Positions 19 to 5,667 of a DNA stretch of 5,667 nt are shown piece by piece. A program made the position numbers and the translations under genes. This stretch comes from Bacteroidota bacterium (lineage in GTDB: Bacteria; Bacteroidota; Bacteroidia; Chitinophagales; Chitinophagaceae), in contig JAEWWO010000405.1 of the NCBI GenBank assembly GCA_023396345.1, forward strand, positions 1 to 5,667, read 5' to 3'. A model generated the notes under the pieces. That model did no database searches, was not told the origin of the DNA, and saw nothing but the letters and a program-made list of their open reading frames with translations. How positions within the stretch are numbered: the first letter of the stretch is position 1; each line of letters starts with the position of its first letter.

Positions 19-48
19 TTTGTTGTATTAAATATTATATTACATTTG
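19..48 (+). promoter_or_regulatory. Bacteroidota-type promoter of the leader-pheA operon
   Basis: TTTG at 19-22 and TACATTTG at 41-48 match the -33 (TTTG) and -7 (TAnnTTTG) elements known for the primary sigma factor of Bacteroidota, separated by 18 bases. The -7 element fits all six defined positions. Transcription would be expected to begin at about 53-57, giving a 5' untranslated stretch of roughly 11-15 bases before the leader peptide start at 68. The motif match is seen directly. The start site is inferred. Confidence 0.6.
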
Positions 49-67
49 CACAGAATTAATAGAGTAT

Positions 68-145
68 ATGCAAAGCAATAACAATTTCTTTTATTTTTTT
101 GGTTATTTCTATTTTAGCAAAAATAGACTGAGTTGTTATGCTTAA
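68..145 (+). CDS. pheL: Phe/Tyr-rich leader peptide of the pheA operon attenuator
   Basis: This 25-codon ORF (ATG at 68, TAA at 143) has FFYFFGYFYF at residues 7-16: six Phe, three Tyr and one Gly in ten residues, using both TTT and TTC for Phe. Residues 1-6 (MQSNNN) are ordinary, and the tail includes RLSCYA. It lies between a good promoter and a terminator hairpin immediately before prephenate dehydratase. This matches the design of enterobacterial pheL and other amino acid leader peptides, which sense charged tRNA through ribosome stalling. Phe and Tyr are exactly the two products of the downstream pheA and tyrA branches. The codons for residues 20-25 also form one strand of the antiterminator. 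The peptide itself probably has no function after synthesis. The symbol is by analogy of role, not by homology. The AT-rich DNA raises the chance of TTT and TAT codons, but the promoter and paired structures argue against coincidence. Confidence 0.82.
   Translation: MQSNNNFFYFFGYFYFSKNRLSCYA
108..127 (+). promoter_or_regulatory. Leader hairpin 1:2 (possible pause/protector hairpin)
   Basis: TCTATTTT at 108-115 pairs perfectly with AAAATAGA at 120-127 around an AGCA loop (8 bp). The 5' arm covers leader codons 14-16 (Phe, Tyr, Phe). A ribosome on those codons would melt the hairpin. The 3' arm shares bases 126-127 with the antiterminator, so the two structures compete only at the edge. By position it corresponds to the 1:2 pause hairpin of classical attenuators. 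It is AT-rich and weak, so a role in pausing is inference. Confidence 0.45.
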
Positions 146-187
146 ACCCAAATAAACTAAAATCATTAAAAGTATAAAATCTCAGTC
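126..187 (+). promoter_or_regulatory. Antiterminator helix of the Phe/Tyr attenuator
   Basis: Bases 126-143 can pair with 170-187 in 16 of 18 positions, including one G-U wobble. The core GACTGAG (126-132) pairs perfectly with CTCAGTC (181-187). A second block, 136-143 with 170-177, adds eight pairs. Only T133/T180 and G135/A178 are mismatched. The 3' strand takes bases 177-187 away from the terminator stem, so the two helices exclude each other. The 5' strand lies in leader codons 20-25 and the first base of the stop codon. A ribosome stalled on codons 7-16 would leave it mostly exposed, whereas one at the stop codon would cover it. Pairing is seen directly. The regulatory behaviour is inferred from known trp, phe and his attenuators. 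Confidence 0.75.
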
Positions 188-208
188 CAAACGGATTGAG
201 ATTTTTTT
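176..208 (+). terminator. Intrinsic terminator (attenuator) before pheA
   Basis: Bases 176-188 pair with 193-205 as a 13-bp stem with one G-U wobble (G185-T196) around an AAAC tetraloop. The 3' arm runs into T202-T208, giving a seven-T tract. Its 5' arm is also the 3' strand of the antiterminator. It lies after the leader stop codon and 8 bases before the pheA start. It could simply end an upstream transcript, but no gene other than the leader lies between it and the promoter at 19-48, so attenuation is the better reading. Confidence 0.85.
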
Positions 209-216
209 AATATAGT

Positions 217-1083
217 ATGGCAAAAAGTATCAGACAGAAATTAATTGAACAAAAAAATATTGTTTCTATACAAGGGTTTCCCGGCTGTTTTCATCAGGAA
301 GCAGCAGAAGTATTTTATAACGGAAACGTTGAAGTGGTATGCTGCAATACTTTTAAAGAAGTAATAAAAATAGCTTCCAATAAAAAAGAGAGTAGTGGCG
401 GAGTGATGGCTATAGAAAATTCAATTGCGGGAAGCATCCTACCCAATTACAATCTGTTATTAAAAAGTAATTTAAAAATTATAGGTGAAGTATATCTGCA
501 AATAAGTCAGAATCTGATGGTTAATAAAGGTGTAAAACTGGAAGATATTAAAGAAGTGCATTCGCACCCGATGGCATTGCAACAATGCGAACAATTTTTA
601 GATAAGCATCCCTGGAAGCTGGTAGAATCCGATGACACAGCATTGAGTGCAAAAAAAATATCTAAAAATAAAAGTAAAACCACTGCAGCTATAGCAAGTG
701 CGCTGGCTGCAAAGATTTATAATCTTGATATAGTTGCGCCTTCTATTCATACACTGAAAAATAATTACACGCGTTTTTTAATTTTAAACAGAGCCGAAGT
801 TGCTGAAGAAATTGAAGATGCCAACAAAGCTTCTGTTTATTTTCATACCGATAATTCCAGAGGTAGTCTGGCAAAAGTGCTGAATAAAGTAAATGATGCA
901 GGAATAAACTTAACGAAGCTGCAAAGTTTTCCGATTCCAGGAAGCGACTGGAAATACAGCTTCCATGTAGATATGGAGTTTGATAATAAATCTCAGTTCT
1001 TCAAGTTGATGAAAAAAATTGATCCGTTAACGGAAGAGATGAAAATTTACGGAATTTACAAAAGCGGAAAGTCTCTTAACTGA
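217..1083 (+). CDS. pheA: Prephenate dehydratase, monofunctional, with ACT domain
   Basis: This cytoplasmic enzyme converts prephenate to phenylpyruvate, the committed step to phenylalanine. The catalytic PDT domain spans about residues 15-192. It opens with IQGFPGCFHQEAA, contains the AIENSIAGSI segment at 65-74, and carries the TRF motif at 185-187 with Thr185 as the expected catalytic residue. A C-terminal ACT domain (about 205-282) has SRGSLAKVL in place of the usual GAL motif and LQSFPIPG in place of ESRP; in this family it binds Phe for feedback inhibition. At 288 residues it has no N-terminal chorismate mutase, unlike E. coli PheA. The start at 217 is the first in-frame ATG after the terminator hairpin and leaves about 14 residues before the first strand. 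No Shine-Dalgarno sequence is present. It is the first structural gene behind the Phe/Tyr attenuator. Confidence 0.95.
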   Translation: MAKSIRQKLIEQKNIVSIQGFPGCFHQEAAEVFYNGNVEVVCCNTFKEVIKIASNKKESSGGVMAIENSIAGSILPNYNLLLKSNLKIIGEVYLQISQNLMVNKGVKLEDIKEVHSHPMALQQCEQFLDKHPWKLVESDDTALSAKKISKNKSKTTAAIASALAAKIYNLDIVAPSIHTLKNNYTRFLILNRAEVAEEIEDANKASVYFHTDNSRGSLAKVLNKVNDAGINLTKLQSFPIPGSDWKYSFHVDMEFDNKSQFFKLMKKIDPLTEEMKIYGIYKSGKSLN

Positions 1084-1245
1084 TTAATGTTTAATTATGA
1101 AGAATTATAACATAATAAAAGAGTTTGAAAATATTCATTTTGATGCAGTGGAGATAATTAATTAATTACTTCAATAATTGTTTCTTCGAAAAGGTCAATA
1201 AATAAATTAAACACTAATCATTAATAATTAACCATTAATAATTAA
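1084..1245. other. AT-rich gap between pheA and the aminotransferase gene
   Basis: This is the longest gap inside the cluster (162 bases). I see no intrinsic terminator and no complete TAnnTTTG promoter in it; the nearest is TCATTTTG at 1135-1142, which lacks the TA. It contains an ATG-initiated ORF of 22 codons (1097-1165, beginning MKNYNIIKEF) with no recognisable family and no run of regulatory codons, which I do not call as a gene. The 3' end holds a tandem repeat annotated separately. Read-through from pheA seems likely, with possible RNA processing here. Confidence 0.5.
1219..1244. repeat. Tandem 12-base AT repeat abutting the start codon
   Basis: CATTAATAATTA occurs at 1219-1230 and again at 1233-1244, a 14-base period, ending one base before the aminotransferase ATG at 1246. 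Each copy is nearly self-complementary. It leaves the translation start region unstructured and A/T-rich, which suits start sites lacking a Shine-Dalgarno sequence. A role as an operator is possible but nothing else supports it. Confidence 0.6.
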
Positions 1246-2406
1246 ATGAACGTTTCTAAAAGATTACAGGGTGTAGAAGAATACTACTTTTCCAAAAAAC
1301 TAAGAGAAGTAGAAGAGATGAACAAGCAGGGAAAAAATGTTCTGAATCTGGGAATTGGAAGTCCTGATTTGCCTCCGCATCCTGAAGTAATCAAAGAGCT
1401 GAACGAAAGAAGTCTGGAACCAAATCTACACGGATATCAAGGTTATAAAGGCTTGCCCGTGTTGAGAAATGCCATGAGTGAATGGTATAAAAAATGGTAT
1501 AATGTAGAACTGAATCCTAACAGCGAAATTCTTCCTTTAATGGGTTCAAAAGAAGGAATCATGCACATTTGCATGACTTATTTGGATGAAGGAGATATAG
1601 CATTGGTGCCGAATCCGGGCTATCCAACTTATGCCAGTAATATTAAACTTACAGGGGCAAAAGCACTTACGTATAATCTGAATGAAGAGAATAGCTGGTT
1701 GCCTGATTTCGCAGAAATCGAAAAGAATGATTTATCGAAAGTGAAATTATTTTTTGTGAATTACACACAGATGCCAACAGGAAAAGCCGCTTCAAAAGAA
1801 CTGTTTGAGCAGATTATATCTTTTACAAAAAAACATAATATACTGGTGGTGCATGATAACCCTTACAGCTTTATTTTAAATGATCAACCGTTAAGCATTT
1901 TATCTGTTGTTGGAGCTAAGGATGTGGCGATAGAATTAAATTCTCTCAGCAAATCGCACAACATGGCGGGCTGGAGAATAGGTATGATGCTGGGCAATGC
2001 GCAGAGAATAGAGGAGGTGTTGAGGTTTAAAAGTAATATGGATAGTGGCATGTTCGCACCGTTGCAATATGCAGCTGCAAAAGCTTTGACCTTAGGAAAA
2101 GAGTGGCACGATCAAATGAATGCGGTATATCACACTCGCAGAACAAAAGTATATGAATTATTGGATTTGCTTGAATGTTCTTATGATAAAACACAGACAG
2201 GTTTATTTATATGGGCTAAAATTCCGGATGCGTATAATGATTGCTATCAAATAGCAGATGATGTGTTGTACCAGTCAAATGTATTTATTACACCGGGTGG
2301 TATATTTGGCAGTCAGGGAAACAGATACATCAGAATATCACTCTGTGGAAATGAACAAAGATTTGATGAATCAATTTCCAGAATTAAGAAATCTAAATTG
2401 AATTAA
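1246..2406 (+). CDS. PLP-dependent class I/II aminotransferase, probably aromatic
   Basis: This is a fold-type I aminotransferase of 386 residues, a normal length for the family. It has the substrate-loop region NLGIGSPDLPPHP (34-46), the cofactor phosphate segment GSKEGI (100-105), Asp204 and Tyr207 in HDNPYS (203-208) for the PLP ring, SLSKSHNMAGWRIG (233-246) with Lys236 as the Schiff-base lysine, and Arg363 in YIRIS for the substrate carboxylate. The usual NPTG motif reads MPTG (176-179), so Met replaces the Asn that normally contacts the PLP hydroxyl. Lying between pheA and tyrA, it probably transaminates phenylpyruvate and 4-hydroxyphenylpyruvate, usually with glutamate as donor. Similar sequences are often labelled aspartate or LL-diaminopimelate aminotransferase, and sequence alone does not settle the substrate. 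The tyrA start follows 4 bases after its stop codon, so the two are likely co-translated. Confidence 0.9.
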   Translation: MNVSKRLQGVEEYYFSKKLREVEEMNKQGKNVLNLGIGSPDLPPHPEVIKELNERSLEPNLHGYQGYKGLPVLRNAMSEWYKKWYNVELNPNSEILPLMGSKEGIMHICMTYLDEGDIALVPNPGYPTYASNIKLTGAKALTYNLNEENSWLPDFAEIEKNDLSKVKLFFVNYTQMPTGKAASKELFEQIISFTKKHNILVVHDNPYSFILNDQPLSILSVVGAKDVAIELNSLSKSHNMAGWRIGMMLGNAQRIEEVLRFKSNMDSGMFAPLQYAAAKALTLGKEWHDQMNAVYHTRRTKVYELLDLLECSYDKTQTGLFIWAKIPDAYNDCYQIADDVLYQSNVFITPGGIFGSQGNRYIRISLCGNEQRFDESISRIKKSKLN

Positions 2407-2410
2407 AGTA

Positions 2411-3286
2411 ATGTCTGATTTTAATAATCATATTTCAAAAGTTGAAACTGTTGCTATACTTGGGCTTGGGCTTATAGGAGGTACTTTTGCCTTTGCCTTA
2501 AAAGATAATAAGCTGGCAAAAAAAATAATTGGAATAAGTGTAGGAAGGGCATCTGAAGCCCGAGCTTTGGAGCTGGGGATTGTAGATGAATTATTACCCT
2601 TGGAAGAAGCTGTAAATGCTGCTGATTTAATAATTTTGTCGGTACCTGTAGATACCTGTGTGGAAGTGCTGCCCAAAGTTTTAGATTTAGTAGATAAACA
2701 GATTGTGATAGATATGGGTTCTACCAAAGAGGCTTTAATAAAAGCTGTGGCAAATCATCCGAAGCGCAGAAGATATTTGCCTACGCATCCTATGTGGGGA
2801 ACCGAATTCAGTGGGCCTGAAGCTGCCTTGCACAATGTATTGCAGGGAAAAAATTTTATTATCTGTAGCAAGGAAGACAGCGATGAAGATGTGGTAACAG
2901 AGGTTGAAGCTATTATTCGGGAAATAGGAATGCATATTGTATATATGAACGGAATGGCACACGATGTACACCTGGCGTATGTTTCGCATATTTCGCACAT
3001 CACAAGTTTTGCTTTGGCAAACACCGTTTTAGAAAAAGAAAGAGAAGAAGACAATATATTCGATTTGGCAAGCTCAGGTTTTGAAAGTACAGTGCGTTTG
3101 GCAAAATCCAATCCGAAAACCTGGGTGCCTATTTTTATGCAAAACAAAGAAAATGTTTTGGATGTGCTGAATGAGCATATAACACAGTTAAGAAAATTTA
3201 AAGCATCTCTTGAAAAAGAAAACTGGGATTTTCTTACAGAATTAATTGATAACAGTAATAAAATTAAAAAGATATTAGACAGATAA
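2411..3286 (+). CDS. tyrA: Prephenate dehydrogenase
   Basis: This enzyme oxidises and decarboxylates prephenate to 4-hydroxyphenylpyruvate using NAD(P)+, the committed step to tyrosine. The N-terminal Rossmann domain has VAILGLGLIGG, with GxGxxG glycines at 18, 20 and 23. Strand ends ILSVP (75-79) and the segment IDMGSTKE (100-107) follow. THPMWG (125-130) holds His126, matching the catalytic His of the HPMxG motif. The helical C-terminal domain has YVSHISH (190-196) and the segment GFESTVRLAKSNPKTW (223-238), where Arg229 is the expected prephenate-binding arginine. At 291 residues it is a monofunctional TyrA with neither a chorismate mutase domain nor a C-terminal ACT domain. Feedback control may therefore be limited, which would give transcriptional attenuation more weight (inference). 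It starts 4 bases after the aminotransferase stop. Confidence 0.95.
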   Translation: MSDFNNHISKVETVAILGLGLIGGTFAFALKDNKLAKKIIGISVGRASEARALELGIVDELLPLEEAVNAADLIILSVPVDTCVEVLPKVLDLVDKQIVIDMGSTKEALIKAVANHPKRRRYLPTHPMWGTEFSGPEAALHNVLQGKNFIICSKEDSDEDVVTEVEAIIREIGMHIVYMNGMAHDVHLAYVSHISHITSFALANTVLEKEREEDNIFDLASSGFESTVRLAKSNPKTWVPIFMQNKENVLDVLNEHITQLRKFKASLEKENWDFLTELIDNSNKIKKILDR

Positions 3287-3312: not shown

Positions 3313-4977
3313 ATGATAAAATTTGAAGACATAGCATTAGATGAGAGAATTCTGAATGCTGTAAACGATCTTGGATTTCAACATCCAACAGAAATCCAAG
3401 AAAAATCAATACCCGTGCTGCTTTTAGGGCAAAAAGACTTTATAGGTCTGGCACAAACTGGTACTGGAAAAACAGCTGCATTTGGTTTGCCTCTCTTGCA
3501 ATTAATAGACGAGGGTCAGAAGCATCCTCAGGCTTTAATTGTCTGTCCTACACGCGAATTGTGTATGCAGATAGTAAAGGAAATAATCAATTTTAAAAAA
3601 TATATCAAAGGCGTACAAATAGTTGCAGTATACGGCGGAGCCAGTATTGTGATGCAAATGAAAGACATCAAAAAAGGTGTACAGATTGTAGTGGCAACAC
3701 CCGGAAGATTGATAGATTTAATCGAAAGAAAAGCTATTCATCTTGATAAAATAAAATATGTAGTATTAGACGAAGCTGATGAAATGCTGAATATGGGCTT
3801 TCAGGAAGACATAGAATTTATTTTGGGCAACACGCCAAACCGTGATTCCACGTGGCTTTTCAGTGCTACTATGCCTGCTGAAATCAGAAAGGTAAGCAAG
3901 AAGTATATGCAAAATCCCGTAGAGGTTACTGTAGGTAAAGCCAATACCGTTAACACAAGTATTGATCATCAGTATTATGTTACAACGGCTGCAAACCGTT
4001 ACGAAACTTTAAAAAGACTGATAGATTTTAATCCGGGTATTTACGGTATTATATTTACCAGAACAAAAGTGGATGCACAGAATATCACAGAAAAATTAAT
4101 CAGGGAAGGATATGATATTGATGCTTTGCATGGCGATTTAACACAGCCCCAGCGCGATAAGGTTATGAATCAGTTCAGAGATCGTGCTTTGCAGTTGTTA
4201 ATTGCTACAGACGTTGCAGCGCGTGGTATTGACGTGAAAGAAATAACACACGTCATCAATTATGAATTGCCCGACGATATTGAAGTGTATACACACAGAA
4301 GCGGCAGAACGGGAAGAGCAGGAAGCACCGGTGTATGTATGAGTATTGTGCATTCCAGAGAGGTGTATAAATTAAAGCAGATTGAAAAAGTATCTAAGGC
4401 CACCATCAATAAAATGGAAATTCCATCAGGTAAAGATGTGTGCAGAAAACAGTTTTATTTTTATATGGACAGATTGCTGAATGCAGATATTACCAATGAT
4501 GAATATGAAACTTATGTACCCATGCTACAGGAAAAATTTGCAGAGGTAAGTAAGGAAGATATTCTTAAACGTGTGGCTGCACTTGAGTTTGACAGATTTT
4601 TAAAATACTACGAAAATTCTGAAGACCTCAACAATCATCAGGATGCAAGAAGAGGAAATGATAGAAATGCCTCGCGCAACGAGCGCAGAGAAGGAAGCAA
4701 TTATAATTCACCAAAAGGTGACACTGCAAGACTGTTTGTAAATCTGGGAACTAAAGATGGTTTTCATAAATCAAACTTTATACAGTTTATTTTAGATATT
4801 TCCGATTTAAGTAAAGACGTATTGGGAAGAATAGATTTACGCGAGTTGAACAGTTGGGTGGAAATAGATAAAAAGGCTTCAAAGCAATTGATTAAATCTT
4901 TGGACGGTAAGAATTTCAGAGGAAGAAAAATCAGAATGAACGATGCCAGCAGCAGACCTTCAGGAAGAAAAAAATAA
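3313..4977 (+). CDS. DEAD-box ATP-dependent RNA helicase with DbpA-type RNA-binding domain
   Basis: All core helicase motifs are present: Q motif with Gln29 in GFQHPTEIQ (21-29), motif I AQTGTGKT (47-54), Ia PTREL (79-83), TPGR (129-132), DEAD (153-156), SAT (184-186), IIFTRTK (246-252), TDVAARGID (299-307) and HRSGRTGRAG (328-337). A dimerisation-like helical stretch (about 360-430) leads to an Asn/Arg-rich linker (about 439-468). Residues 471-545, starting TARLFVNLGTKDG, resemble the DbpA/CsdA C-terminal RNA-binding domain, and the tail is basic (RPSGRKK). Relatives unwind short RNA duplexes in ribosome assembly and in mRNA handling in the cold; the exact role here is unknown. Its architecture is closest to DeaD/CsdA or DbpA. 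It begins 26 bases after tyrA with no clear promoter or terminator between them, so it may be transcribed with the aromatic genes. No motif residue is missing. Confidence 0.95.
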   Translation: MIKFEDIALDERILNAVNDLGFQHPTEIQEKSIPVLLLGQKDFIGLAQTGTGKTAAFGLPLLQLIDEGQKHPQALIVCPTRELCMQIVKEIINFKKYIKGVQIVAVYGGASIVMQMKDIKKGVQIVVATPGRLIDLIERKAIHLDKIKYVVLDEADEMLNMGFQEDIEFILGNTPNRDSTWLFSATMPAEIRKVSKKYMQNPVEVTVGKANTVNTSIDHQYYVTTAANRYETLKRLIDFNPGIYGIIFTRTKVDAQNITEKLIREGYDIDALHGDLTQPQRDKVMNQFRDRALQLLIATDVAARGIDVKEITHVINYELPDDIEVYTHRSGRTGRAGSTGVCMSIVHSREVYKLKQIEKVSKATINKMEIPSGKDVCRKQFYFYMDRLLNADITNDEYETYVPMLQEKFAEVSKEDILKRVAALEFDRFLKYYENSEDLNNHQDARRGNDRNASRNERREGSNYNSPKGDTARLFVNLGTKDGFHKSNFIQFILDISDLSKDVLGRIDLRELNSWVEIDKKASKQLIKSLDGKNFRGRKIRMNDASSRPSGRKK

Positions 4978-4983
4978 TAAAAT

Positions 4984-5232
4984 ATGAATCCGAAATTAGA
5001 AAAGGAAATCGCATGGGTCAACAGCGACGAATTTATTTTAGGAGAATATATTTATATGGGAATGGCAATTGTGAAAGGTAAACGTGTATGCATTGCGGTT
5101 GCCTATAAAATTGATTATTGCATTAAAAAGGCAAGAGAGTTTGAGAAGTTAGATAGTAACGTTATCTTCACGCATGTAAACAAAGTGAGAATTGGAGAGC
5201 TTATGGAATGTGATAAATTTAAAATCAGTTAA
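4984..5232 (+). CDS. Hypothetical 82-residue protein
   Basis: I do not recognise this family. The ORF starts 6 bases after the helicase stop codon, and the gap is purely A/T with a second TAA. It ends with TAA and another in-frame stop two codons later. The protein is soluble-looking, with no signal peptide or membrane segment, and is rich in Lys (11) balanced by 12 acidic residues. It reads as a strand-rich first half (EYIYMGMAIVKGKRVCIAVAY, 21-41) followed by a helix (about 44-56) and a final strand with HVNKVRIGEL (64-73). Cysteines at 36, 46 and 76 show no metal-site spacing. Tight coupling to the helicase suggests co-expression and perhaps a shared RNA-related job, but that is inference. 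Codon use resembles the neighbours. Confidence 0.75.
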   Translation: MNPKLEKEIAWVNSDEFILGEYIYMGMAIVKGKRVCIAVAYKIDYCIKKAREFEKLDSNVIFTHVNKVRIGELMECDKFKIS

Positions 5233-5267: not shown

Positions 5268-5667
5268 ATGAACGCAGAAGAATTGCAAAAACAAAAAGAA
5301 ACTTTATACAAGGTTTGGCATAAAAGACCCATGATTATCTCCGGTCCGTGCAGTGCAGAAACTGAAGAGCAAATTTTGGAAACAGCCAAAGGCTTATCGG
5401 CTACAGGTAAGGTAGATATTTTTCGTGCGGGTATTTGGAAACCACGCACACGTCCCGGAAGTTTTGAAGGTATTGGTGTAAAAGGTTTGCCCTGGTTGCA
5501 GGCTGCCAAAAAAGCTACCGGATTATTGATGGCTGTTGAGGTTGCTACTCCCAAGCAGGTAGAAAATGCATTGGAATTTGGCGTTGATATTTTGTGGATT
5601 GGCGGACGTACAACCGTGAATCCGTTTAGTGTGCAGGACATAGCAGATGCATTGAGAGGTGCTGATG
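5268..5667 (+). CDS. aroF: 3-deoxy-7-phosphoheptulonate (DAHP) synthase, N-terminal part, cut by window edge
   Basis: This enzyme condenses phosphoenolpyruvate with erythrose 4-phosphate, the first step of the shikimate pathway. The visible 133 residues show the hallmarks of the AroF/KDO8P-synthase-like type: GPCSAE (26-31) with Cys28 as a metal ligand, FRAGIWKPRTRPGSFEG (52-68) with Lys58, Arg60 and Arg62 in the substrate site, EVAT (91-94), and WIGGRTTVNPFSVQDIADAL (110-129). The usual WIGAR is WIGGR here. Bacteroidota homologues often carry a C-terminal AroQ chorismate mutase domain, which would make prephenate for pheA and tyrA; whether it is present lies beyond the window. ATG at 5268 is the natural start, with about 20 residues before the first strand, in an A-rich context and 35 bases after the previous stop. 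The symbol is a type assignment; aroA or aroG names are also used. Confidence 0.93.
   Translation, partial: MNAEELQKQKETLYKVWHKRPMIISGPCSAETEEQILETAKGLSATGKVDIFRAGIWKPRTRPGSFEGIGVKGLPWLQAAKKATGLLMAVEVATPKQVENALEFGVDILWIGGRTTVNPFSVQDIADALRGAD

What the first reader, a model, noticed from the sequence alone, without database searches (positions are those of the whole stretch)
19..216. Complete Phe/Tyr transcription attenuator ahead of pheA in a Bacteroidota genome
The 200 bases before pheA contain every part of a ribosome-mediated attenuator in correct order: promoter, aromatic-rich leader peptide, 1:2 hairpin, antiterminator and intrinsic terminator. Geometry fits. If the ribosome stalls on leader codons 7-16 (86-115), a typical front edge about 12-14 bases ahead leaves 126-143 mostly free to trap 170-187 and block the terminator. 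If it reaches the stop codon (143-145), it covers about 125-157 and the terminator forms. Such systems are best known in Proteobacteria; I know of little experimental work in Bacteroidota. Sequence elements are seen directly; function is inference.
Basis: partly seen in the sequence, partly recalled or inferred. Interest (0 to 1): 0.93.

Follow-up and report, generated by a model that had tools for sequence, protein, structure and literature searches.

The report
Phe/Tyr-sensing attenuator ahead of pheA
Just ahead of the phenylalanine- and tyrosine-making genes of a likely Bacteroidota bacterium lies a short reading frame packed with phenylalanine and tyrosine codons, followed by RNA segments predicted to fold in mutually exclusive ways, so that a ribosome stalled for lack of these amino acids would likely switch the genes on; the same layout recurs in dozens of related genomes, and similar elements have already been hinted at in print for flavobacteria.

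Summary
Window 68-145 encodes MQSNNNFFYFFGYFYFSKNRLSCYA*, after a Bacteroidota-type promoter match (TTTG 19-22, TACATTTG 41-48) and before a terminator-like hairpin (176-205); pheA starts at 217. Segment 126-143 can pair with the leader's start, or with 170-187 and so block the terminator. The leader exceeds 5000 shuffles and 540 control upstream regions. Leader plus terminator recurs in 71 of 156 pheA loci compared (window included), nearly confined to one pheA clade (70 of 76 there). The switching stem differs wholesale between lineages while both strands keep pace; the window has GACTGAG/CTCAGTC where most Chitinophagaceae relatives have GCCGGGA/TCCCGGC. Best explanation: classical ribosome-mediated attenuation of the Phe/Tyr operon. 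Function is inferred; no expression data were available. It is a new member of a known kind: a 2021 flavobacterial transcriptome paper names conserved 5' elements before pheA and hisG and 'strong clues' for leader-peptide attenuation. Not found in print: in 30 genomes of the Niastella family a cognate leader plus terminator precedes pheA (22/22 loci), hisG (22/24) and trpE (22/23), and most leaders with a recognisable promoter box are predicted to start 0-6 bases before the AUG. The window's predicted 5' UTR is 15 bases.

The parts
19..22 (+). TTTG, predicted -33 promoter element
   Evidence: Read directly; 18 bases before the -7 box. Consensus TTTG at about -33 from PMC7366714 (passages).
41..48 (+). 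TACATTTG, predicted -7 box (TAnnTTTG) of the primary sigma factor
   Evidence: Exact match; position -12 to -5 of the start site from PMC9723704 (passages).
53..67 (+). Predicted transcription start (53) and 15-base 5' UTR
   Evidence: Inferred from the -7 box plus 12 bases.
68..145 (+). Leader ORF MQSNNNFFYFFGYFYFSKNRLSCYA*; regulatory Phe/Tyr codons 7-16 at 86-115
   Evidence: Phe/Tyr-rich leaders in relatives.
73..98 (+). Strand 1 of the predicted protector hairpin 1:2
   Evidence: Pairs with 119-143 in the predicted fold; 1 of 100 shuffles as good.
126..143 (+). Strand 2: antiterminator strand, alternatively part of hairpin 1:2
   Evidence: 126-132 with 181-187 and 136-143 with 170-177; at most 2 of 200 shuffles as good.
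170..188 (+). Strand 3: pairs with strand 2 (antiterminator) or, from 176, with strand 4 (terminator)
193..205 (+). Strand 4 of the terminator hairpin (176-188/193-205)
   Evidence: -16.4 kcal/mol for 172-210.
206..208 (+). Rest of the T run of the predicted intrinsic terminator (the run begins inside strand 4)
   Evidence: Read directly.
217..1083 (+). pheA, prephenate dehydratase with ACT-like domain, first gene of the operon
   Evidence: PF00800 E 1.9e-56; ACT match below its curated cut-off.
1246..2406 (+). Class I/II aminotransferase of the operon
   Evidence: PF00155; order pheA, aminotransferase, tyrA in 51 of 53 relative loci.
2411..3286 (+). tyrA, prephenate dehydrogenase
   Evidence: PF02153 and PF20463.
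5268..5667 (+). DAHP synthase gene, cut off by the window end
   Evidence: PF00793.

Best explanation
Window 19-208 holds a promoter-like pair of boxes, a 25-codon Phe/Tyr-rich leader frame, a strand (126-143) complementary both to the leader's start and to the terminator's first arm, and a terminator-like hairpin ahead of pheA, and it would most likely work as a ribosome-mediated transcription attenuator for Phe and Tyr. Predicted course: RNA polymerase starts near base 53 and a ribosome starts on the leader AUG at 68. When charged tRNA-Phe or tRNA-Tyr is short, the ribosome stalls within codons 7-16, its front edge reaching no further than about 127, and 126-143 pairs with 170-187 before 193-205 has been made, so no terminator forms and pheA, the aminotransferase, tyrA and probably the DAHP synthase gene are transcribed. 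When both are plentiful the ribosome runs to the stop at 143-145 and covers strand 2 or releases it into hairpin 1:2; strand 3 then pairs with strand 4 and transcription ends near 206-210. Shown: the sequences, complementarities, chance tests and conservation. Inferred: transcription start, translation, stalling, kinetic preference for the antiterminator, termination and the amino-acid response.
For: Leader, stems, terminator-like hairpin and promoter boxes at the stated places. Leader beyond 5000 shuffles and 540 control regions; the Phe/Tyr enrichment is in frame (579 codons in the read frame against 161 and 175 in the others, 71 leaders). Leader plus terminator at 71 of 156 pheA loci: 47 of 53 relatives, 23 of 102 loci of a phylum-wide draw, and the window; in a family draw at 22 of 22, three of them genomes already counted. 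Own 2:3 duplexes average -15.8 kcal/mol against -8.6 when strands from unlike relatives are swapped (70 loci, 2130 swaps, 45 different 8-base strand-3 ends). First base of the last Phe/Tyr codon to strand 2: 9-14 nt in 58 of 70. 1:2 pairing -14.2 own against -9.8 swapped (67 loci). Terminator stem: 6 of 9 consensus pairs have double changes that keep pairing (33 sequences). Footprint-barred folds behave as the model needs at base 192. The controlled genes make Phe and Tyr; pheA, aminotransferase and tyrA keep their order in 51 of 53 relatives.
Against: No expression, RNA 3'-end or ribosome-profiling data for this organism. At full length the terminator is favoured whatever the ribosome does (12 terminator pairs in all four settings), so the model depends on kinetics. 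In 18 of 70 loci more than 2 of 200 shuffles reached the 2:3 pairing (L029, L035, L050 and L115 are clear misses), and in 28 of 67 more than 5 of 100 shuffles reached the 1:2 pairing, many of them Rikenellaceae. For the window's own strand 3, 7 of 42 foreign strands 2 paired as well. Inside the clade three Tidjanibacter loci (L034, L039, L043) and two unnamed loci (L094, L098) lack the leader, and L005 has a leader and a hairpin without a clean T run. 79 of 102 pheA loci of the phylum draw show no such element. The RNAalifold consensus of 33 sequences recovered the terminator stem only.
Confidence: 0.92

Rival explanations
1. The terminator is real but is switched by something other than leader translation, for example an RNA-binding protein, a T-box or a riboswitch; the Phe/Tyr frame is incidental.
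For: Terminator and alternative stems alone do not say what flips them; no translation evidence for this genome.
Against: No Rfam family fits: two hits far below gathering scores in the window, no gathering hit in 15 relative loci. Phe/Tyr codons are enriched in the read frame across 71 leaders, and the distance from the last Phe/Tyr codon to strand 2 is nearly constant, which a translating ribosome explains best.
Confidence: 0.04
2. The leader frame acts by translation itself (ribosome reinitiation, translational coupling, or a functional small peptide), and the hairpin is a minor or constitutive terminator.
For: Leader frames have been proposed to raise downstream translation by reinitiation at short distances (PMC4833913, passages); peTrpL of Sinorhizobium has a role in trans (PMC7298713, abstract start and passages).
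Against: 71 bases with a terminator-like hairpin lie between the leader stop and the pheA start; peptide ends after the Phe/Tyr tract differ with the RNA stem between lineages (RPGM, SRD, KRG, NRLS) rather than keeping one sequence.
Confidence: 0.03
3. Chance in A+T-rich DNA: a T-rich tract reads as Phe and the hairpin belongs to an unrelated transcript.
For: The region is very A+T-rich and T runs read as Phe.
Against: Shuffles and 540 control regions do not reach it; the promoter-like boxes lie upstream of the leader; the layout recurs with covarying stems, also in the G+C-rich locus L153.
Confidence: 0.01

Closest known systems
Ribosome-mediated attenuators of amino-acid operons in Proteobacteria (E. 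coli pheL-pheA, trpL, hisL; recalled)
   Same: Leader peptide rich in the end-product amino acid, 1:2 / 2:3 / 3:4 alternative stems, intrinsic terminator before the first structural gene.
   Different: No match to any Rfam leader family at the window or 15 relatives; mixed Phe and Tyr codons for an operon with genes for both; Bacteroidota promoter boxes; the phylum lacks Shine-Dalgarno sequences (PMC7366714, passages).
Conserved 5' elements before pheA and hisG and leader-peptide attenuation clues in Flavobacterium psychrophilum (PMC9723704, passages)
   Same: Same phylum, same genes; the paper sees leader-peptide attenuation before amino-acid operons and reports the pheA and hisG elements as without Rfam hits.
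   Different: The passages I saw give no sequence, structure, leader peptide or distribution beyond Flavobacteriaceae; its supplement was not readable here, so identity of the elements is not shown.
trpL attenuator of Sinorhizobium meliloti with a 5' end at the leader ATG (PMC7298713, passages)
   Same: Transcript begins at or next to the leader AUG, as predicted for most boxed Chitinophagaceae leaders here.
   Different: Alphaproteobacterial, Trp; the start is stated from earlier work there and only predicted here; the window itself has a predicted 15-base 5' UTR.
T-box and riboswitch control of amino-acid genes
   Same: Terminator/antiterminator choice upstream of the operon.
   Different: No such Rfam family found at the window or 15 relatives.

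Membership tests
Ribosome-mediated transcription attenuator | Short leader ORF with clustered codons for the operon's product | tested here: met
   9 Phe/Tyr in codons 7-16; 5000 shuffles at most 8, 540 control regions at most 5.
Ribosome-mediated transcription attenuator | Intrinsic terminator between leader and first structural gene | tested here: met
   Hairpin 176-205 with T run; predicted from sequence, termination not measured.
Ribosome-mediated transcription attenuator | Antiterminator exclusive with the terminator, supported by covariation | tested here: met
   126-132/181-187 and 136-143/170-177; own against swapped strands -15.8 and -8.6 kcal/mol over 70 loci, 18 of 70 weak against shuffles.
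Ribosome-mediated transcription attenuator | Protector hairpin 1:2 that sequesters strand 2 | tested here: met
   Window: 73-98/119-143, 1 of 100 shuffles as good; across relatives 5 or fewer of 100 shuffles in 39 of 67 only.
Ribosome-mediated transcription attenuator | Ribosome stalled on regulatory codons leaves strand 2 free; ribosome at the stop covers it | tested here: met
   Window distance 13 nt; footprint-barred folds to base 192 give 15, 13 and 0 antiterminator pairs for codon 13, codon 16 and stop.
Ribosome-mediated transcription attenuator | Leader is translated | tested here: inconclusive
   In-frame Phe/Tyr enrichment across 71 leaders argues for it; no ribosome profiling of this organism.
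Ribosome-mediated transcription attenuator | Read-through rises on starvation for the amino acid | not testable with these tools
   Needs expression data.
Rfam leader, T-box or riboswitch families | Match to a curated covariance model | tested here: not met
   Window: two hits at E 0.29 and 0.96, both far under gathering scores; 15 relative loci, none at gathering score.
Leaderless attenuator (as Sinorhizobium trpL) | Transcript starts at the leader AUG | tested here: not met
   Window: predicted 15-base 5' UTR. Family draw: predicted 0-6 bases in 18 of 20 pheA leaders with an exact box.

The most novel reading that the evidence does not exclude
Ribosome-mediated attenuation is the standard control of the Phe/Tyr, His and Trp operons in Chitinophagaceae, and it runs on near-leaderless transcripts: RNA polymerase starts 0-6 bases before the leader AUG, so a ribosome must load on the bare 5' end of the nascent RNA in a phylum without Shine-Dalgarno sequences and then stay coupled to the polymerase. 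The pheA version descends from one deep ancestor of a pheA lineage while its switching stem is repeatedly replaced as a whole.
Probability: 0.55. Interest if true: 0.72.

Novelty: new member of a known kind. Interest (0 to 1): 0.52.

Why it matters
A ribosome-mediated attenuator works only if a ribosome follows closely behind RNA polymerase. Widespread, covarying attenuators in Bacteroidota, a phylum with its own promoter code and no Shine-Dalgarno sequences, would be evolutionary evidence that transcription and translation are functionally coupled there, and they give ready-made reporters to test it. They would also explain how a large group of environmental bacteria senses Phe/Tyr, and likely His and Trp. 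The predicted near-leaderless start in Chitinophagaceae makes a question testable: how does a ribosome begin on a nascent RNA that has almost no 5' UTR?

Tried and rejected
Rfam, T-box and riboswitch readings: no support. E. coli-type sigma-70 promoter scan: 20 sites found against 20.2 expected, none on the + strand upstream of the leader, so not informative here. NCBIfam on the leader peptide: no family. MAFFT alignment with RNAalifold recovered the terminator stem only, since strand 2 shifts by a few columns between lineages; the 2:3 and 1:2 stems were therefore tested by swapping strands between loci. Homoserine dehydrogenase was tried as another amino-acid operon: 0 of the 22 loci whose gene start lay inside the locus (8 of 30 did not reach it).

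Corrections of my own work: read loci of minus-strand matches on the wrong strand, so their counts and 'no leader' rows are void; one search repeats both with the right strand and is the one cited (it also uses a slightly looser T-run rule). In one search only leader and terminator were scored, not the 2:3 or 1:2 pairing, and the hairpin it names for L248 (trpE) lies in what looks like coding sequence and is doubtful. One search takes the shortest ATG frame with the best score, so a longer in-frame start is possible in some relatives (alternatives). One search accepts leaders from 5 of 10 Phe/Tyr upward; L035, L045 and L051 are at 5. L149's strand 2 was not placed sensibly, so L149 was dropped, and L149, L045, L029 and L115. 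L025 (80 bases upstream) and L037 (none) cannot show a leader and count as misses in the 47 of 53. L125 of the phylum draw is the same sequence as L017, and both are counted. The tree is a quick one and warns of long branches.

Literature: ten searches. Lopatovskaya, Seliverstov and Lyubetsky 2010 (PMID 20198868), a comparative survey of attenuation in bacteria, is not held; I saw only its citation and recall that it covered several phyla, possibly Bacteroidetes, so priority for the general idea may lie there. A review of his genes in Bacteroidota (PMC8305728, passages) mentions attenuation once, for enterobacteria. PMC10272879 (passages) concerns ilvB leaders and does not mention Bacteroidetes.

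Full report
WHAT IS THERE. The window begins with an A+T-rich control region and runs through pheA (prephenate dehydratase, 217-1083), a class I/II aminotransferase (1246-2406), tyrA (2411-3286), a DEAD-box helicase with a DbpA-type C-terminus (3313-4977), an 82-codon frame without a family (4984-5232) and the start of a DAHP synthase gene (5268 to the end). In the first 216 bases lie TTTG at 19-22 and TACATTTG at 41-48, a frame at 68-145 reading MQSNNNFFYFFGYFYFSKNRLSCYA*, and a hairpin 176-188/193-205 that runs into T bases, the longest-stemmed of 7 terminator-like sites in the window. The leader stop ends 71 bases before the pheA start. A paper on Flavobacterium psychrophilum places the box TAnnTTTG at -12 to -5 of the start site (PMC9723704, passages), which predicts transcription from base 53 and a 15-base 5' UTR.

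THE SWITCH. In the predicted folds 73-98 pairs with 119-143 (hairpin 1:2), or 126-132 pairs with 181-187 and 136-143 with 170-177 (antiterminator 2:3), or 176-188 with 193-205 (terminator 3:4). Folding with a ribosome footprint barred from pairing and the RNA made to base 192 gives 15 antiterminator pairs with the ribosome on codon 13, 13 on codon 16, and none with the ribosome at the stop codon or with 126-143 masked. At full length to 216 the terminator forms in all four cases. The antiterminator therefore has to win by forming first.

CHANCE. Bases 53-216 fold at z = -4.62, 0 of 200 shuffles as good. The leader has 9 Phe/Tyr in 10 codons; among 5000 dinucleotide shuffles of bases 1-216 the best had 8 (2 of 5000), and among 540 regions upstream of other mechanically called ORFs in the fetched loci the best had 5. 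The 2:3 pairing was reached by at most 2 of 200 shuffles and the 1:2 pairing by 1 of 100.

RELATIVES. No whole genome is held for the window. Its pheA protein finds 53 loci, 45-73% identical, mostly labelled Chitinophagaceae, Chitinophagales or plain Bacteroidetes, then Saprospiraceae, Rikenellaceae and one Ignavibacteriales bin. A leader with at least 5 Phe/Tyr in 10 codons plus a terminator hairpin is found at 47 of these 53 loci. The six misses are L025 and L037 (too little upstream DNA), L034, L039 and L043 (three Tidjanibacter-labelled loci without a leader), and L005 (leader and hairpin present, no clean T run). In an even draw of 118 genomes of the phylum, 102 had the pheA family; of 103 matches, 102 were examined as loci L054-L155 (the remaining one is L013 again) and 23 have the element. 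With the window that makes 71 of 156. In a quick tree of the 156 pheA proteins, 70 of these 71 lie in one set of 78 rows (SH-aLRT 98), where 6 rows lack it by my criteria and 2 have too little DNA; outside it 1 of 77 rows (L153) has one, and L154 has too little DNA to tell. The label needs 5 changes against 51 in shuffles. The element thus looks old and mostly inherited with one pheA lineage, with a separate origin in L153 likely; the tree warns of long branches.

COVARIATION. Strand 2 and strand 3 of the same locus pair at -15.8 kcal/mol on average; strands swapped between loci with unlike strand 3 pair at -8.6 (70 loci, 2130 swaps, 45 different 8-base strand-3 ends). Against shuffles, 2 or fewer of 200 reach the pairing in 52 of 70 loci; in 18 more do. 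The stem differs as a whole between lineages: GCCGGGA/TCCCGGC in most Chitinophagaceae, GACTGAG/CTCAGTC in the window, CGAGGCTTT/AAAGCCTCG in L138, GGAGCGGT/GCCGTTCC in L047, ATGAGAACTTC/GAGTTCTCAT in L146. The leader's amino acids after the Phe/Tyr tract change with it, which I read as serving the RNA. The 1:2 pairing averages -14.2 own against -9.8 swapped (67 loci); 5 or fewer of 100 shuffles reach it in 39 of 67; it is convincing in most Chitinophagaceae and weak in many Rikenellaceae. The terminator stem has 6 of 9 consensus pairs with double changes among 33 aligned sequences. Phe/Tyr codons number 579 in the read frame against 161 and 175 in the other frames over the 10-codon tracts of 71 leaders. 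The first base of the last Phe/Tyr codon lies 9-14 nt from the first paired base of strand 2 in 58 of 70 loci, 13 in the window; a ribosome covers about 12 nt beyond its codon (PMC4833913, passages).

BEYOND pheA. In a draw of 30 genomes from the family of G003 (the genome of L013, Niastella yeongjuensis, Chitinophagaceae) I looked upstream of five enzyme families (scored, which replaces the mis-oriented). Cognate leader plus terminator: pheA 22 of 22 loci; hisG 22 of 24 (for example MHIHHHHHFLPHG in L174); trpE 22 of 23 (for example MKVQLINKHWWWHTNSGRGL in L263; the hairpin of L248 is doubtful); ilvD family 7 of 30 (Ile/Val-rich); homoserine dehydrogenase 0 of 22 (8 more loci did not reach the gene start). 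Thresholds differ by amino acid (6 F/Y, 4 H, 2 W, 8 I/L/V, 7 T/I/M in 10), no shuffled control was run for these other operons, and their antiterminator pairing was not tested. Three of the 22 pheA loci are genomes already counted above (L078, L276 = G042, L279 = G003).

NEAR-LEADERLESS START IN RELATIVES. With the -12 to -5 rule, each of the 23 leaders (of 29 from L001-L031) that carry an exact TAnnTTTG has a predicted 5' UTR of 0-5 nt (for L006 counting from its first in-frame AUG); 6 have no exact box. Of 181 other ORFs in the same loci 21 carry the box within 75 nt, 3 of them at 1 nt and 18 at 11-44 nt. In the family draw 18 of 20 boxed pheA leaders, 16 of 20 boxed hisG leaders and 6 of 9 boxed trpE leaders have 0-6 nt; 13 of 22 trpE leaders have no exact box. 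Leaderless mRNAs are 5.5% in F. psychrophilum (PMC9723704, passages), and 5' UTRs under 10 nt about 3.7% in Bacteroides thetaiotaomicron (PMC7366714, passages). The window (15 nt) and the Rikenellaceae with a box (11-45 nt) do not share this. Start sites are predictions from a rule measured in another family of the phylum.

WHAT IS KNOWN. PMC9723704 (2021; passages) reports 64 structured 5' regions in F. psychrophilum, 'strong clues' for leader-peptide attenuation before amino-acid operons, and elements before pheA and hisG conserved in other Flavobacteriaceae without Rfam hits. PMC7366714 (2020; passages) mentions small ORFs in long 5' UTRs of B. thetaiotaomicron 'reminiscent of leader peptides'. 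PMC2965389 (2010; passages) said that, to its authors' knowledge, leader-peptide systems had been shown only in Proteobacteria and Actinobacteria before their own Firmicutes case. A trpL transcript that starts with the leader ATG is known in Sinorhizobium (PMC7298713, passages). I found no paper describing the Phe/Tyr leader peptides, their covarying stems, the His/Trp counterparts or the near-leaderless start in Chitinophagaceae in ten searches of open-licence papers; a 2010 survey by Lopatovskaya and others was not readable.

VERDICT. The finding is real and, as far as sequence can tell, correctly interpreted. It is a new member of the known kind of ribosome-mediated attenuators, with strong comparative support and with prior hints in the same phylum. 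What would lift it is experimental proof of coupling in this phylum and the near-leaderless variant in its relatives.

Noticed in passing
L157-L180 (hisG), L241-L263 (trpE), L181-L210 (ilvD family): His-rich, WWWH-containing and Ile/Val-rich leader frames with terminators upstream of hisG (22 of 24), trpE (22 of 23) and ilvD-family genes (7 of 30) in the family of Niastella.
   Followed up: partly
L001-L031, L268-L288 upstream of the leader ATG: The -7 box sits so close to the leader AUG that most boxed transcripts are predicted to be leaderless or nearly so (0-6 nt), also before hisG and trpE.
   Followed up: partly
window 3313-4977: A DEAD-box RNA helicase gene with a DbpA-type RNA-binding domain stands between tyrA and the DAHP synthase gene; a homologue follows tyrA in 18 of 53 relative loci and precedes pheA in 6.
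   Followed up: no
window 4984-5232: 82-codon frame with no Pfam or NCBIfam family and no tblastn match at E 1e-5 in the 53 relative loci.
   Followed up: no
L153:1965-2165: G+C-rich locus with a second, fused-type pheA whose leader (GTG start, FSFYFYFYFGY) and terminator look independently evolved; it falls outside the main leader clade.
   Followed up: no
L032:3872-4004: A bin labelled Ignavibacteriales carries a Bacteroidota-like pheA with the same attenuator; horizontal transfer or mis-binning.
   Followed up: no
L034, L039, L043: Tidjanibacter-labelled pheA loci inside the leader clade in which no leader was found.
   Followed up: no
window 1084-1245: A+T-rich gap with repeated TTAATTAATT-like stretches between pheA and the aminotransferase gene.
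   Followed up: no
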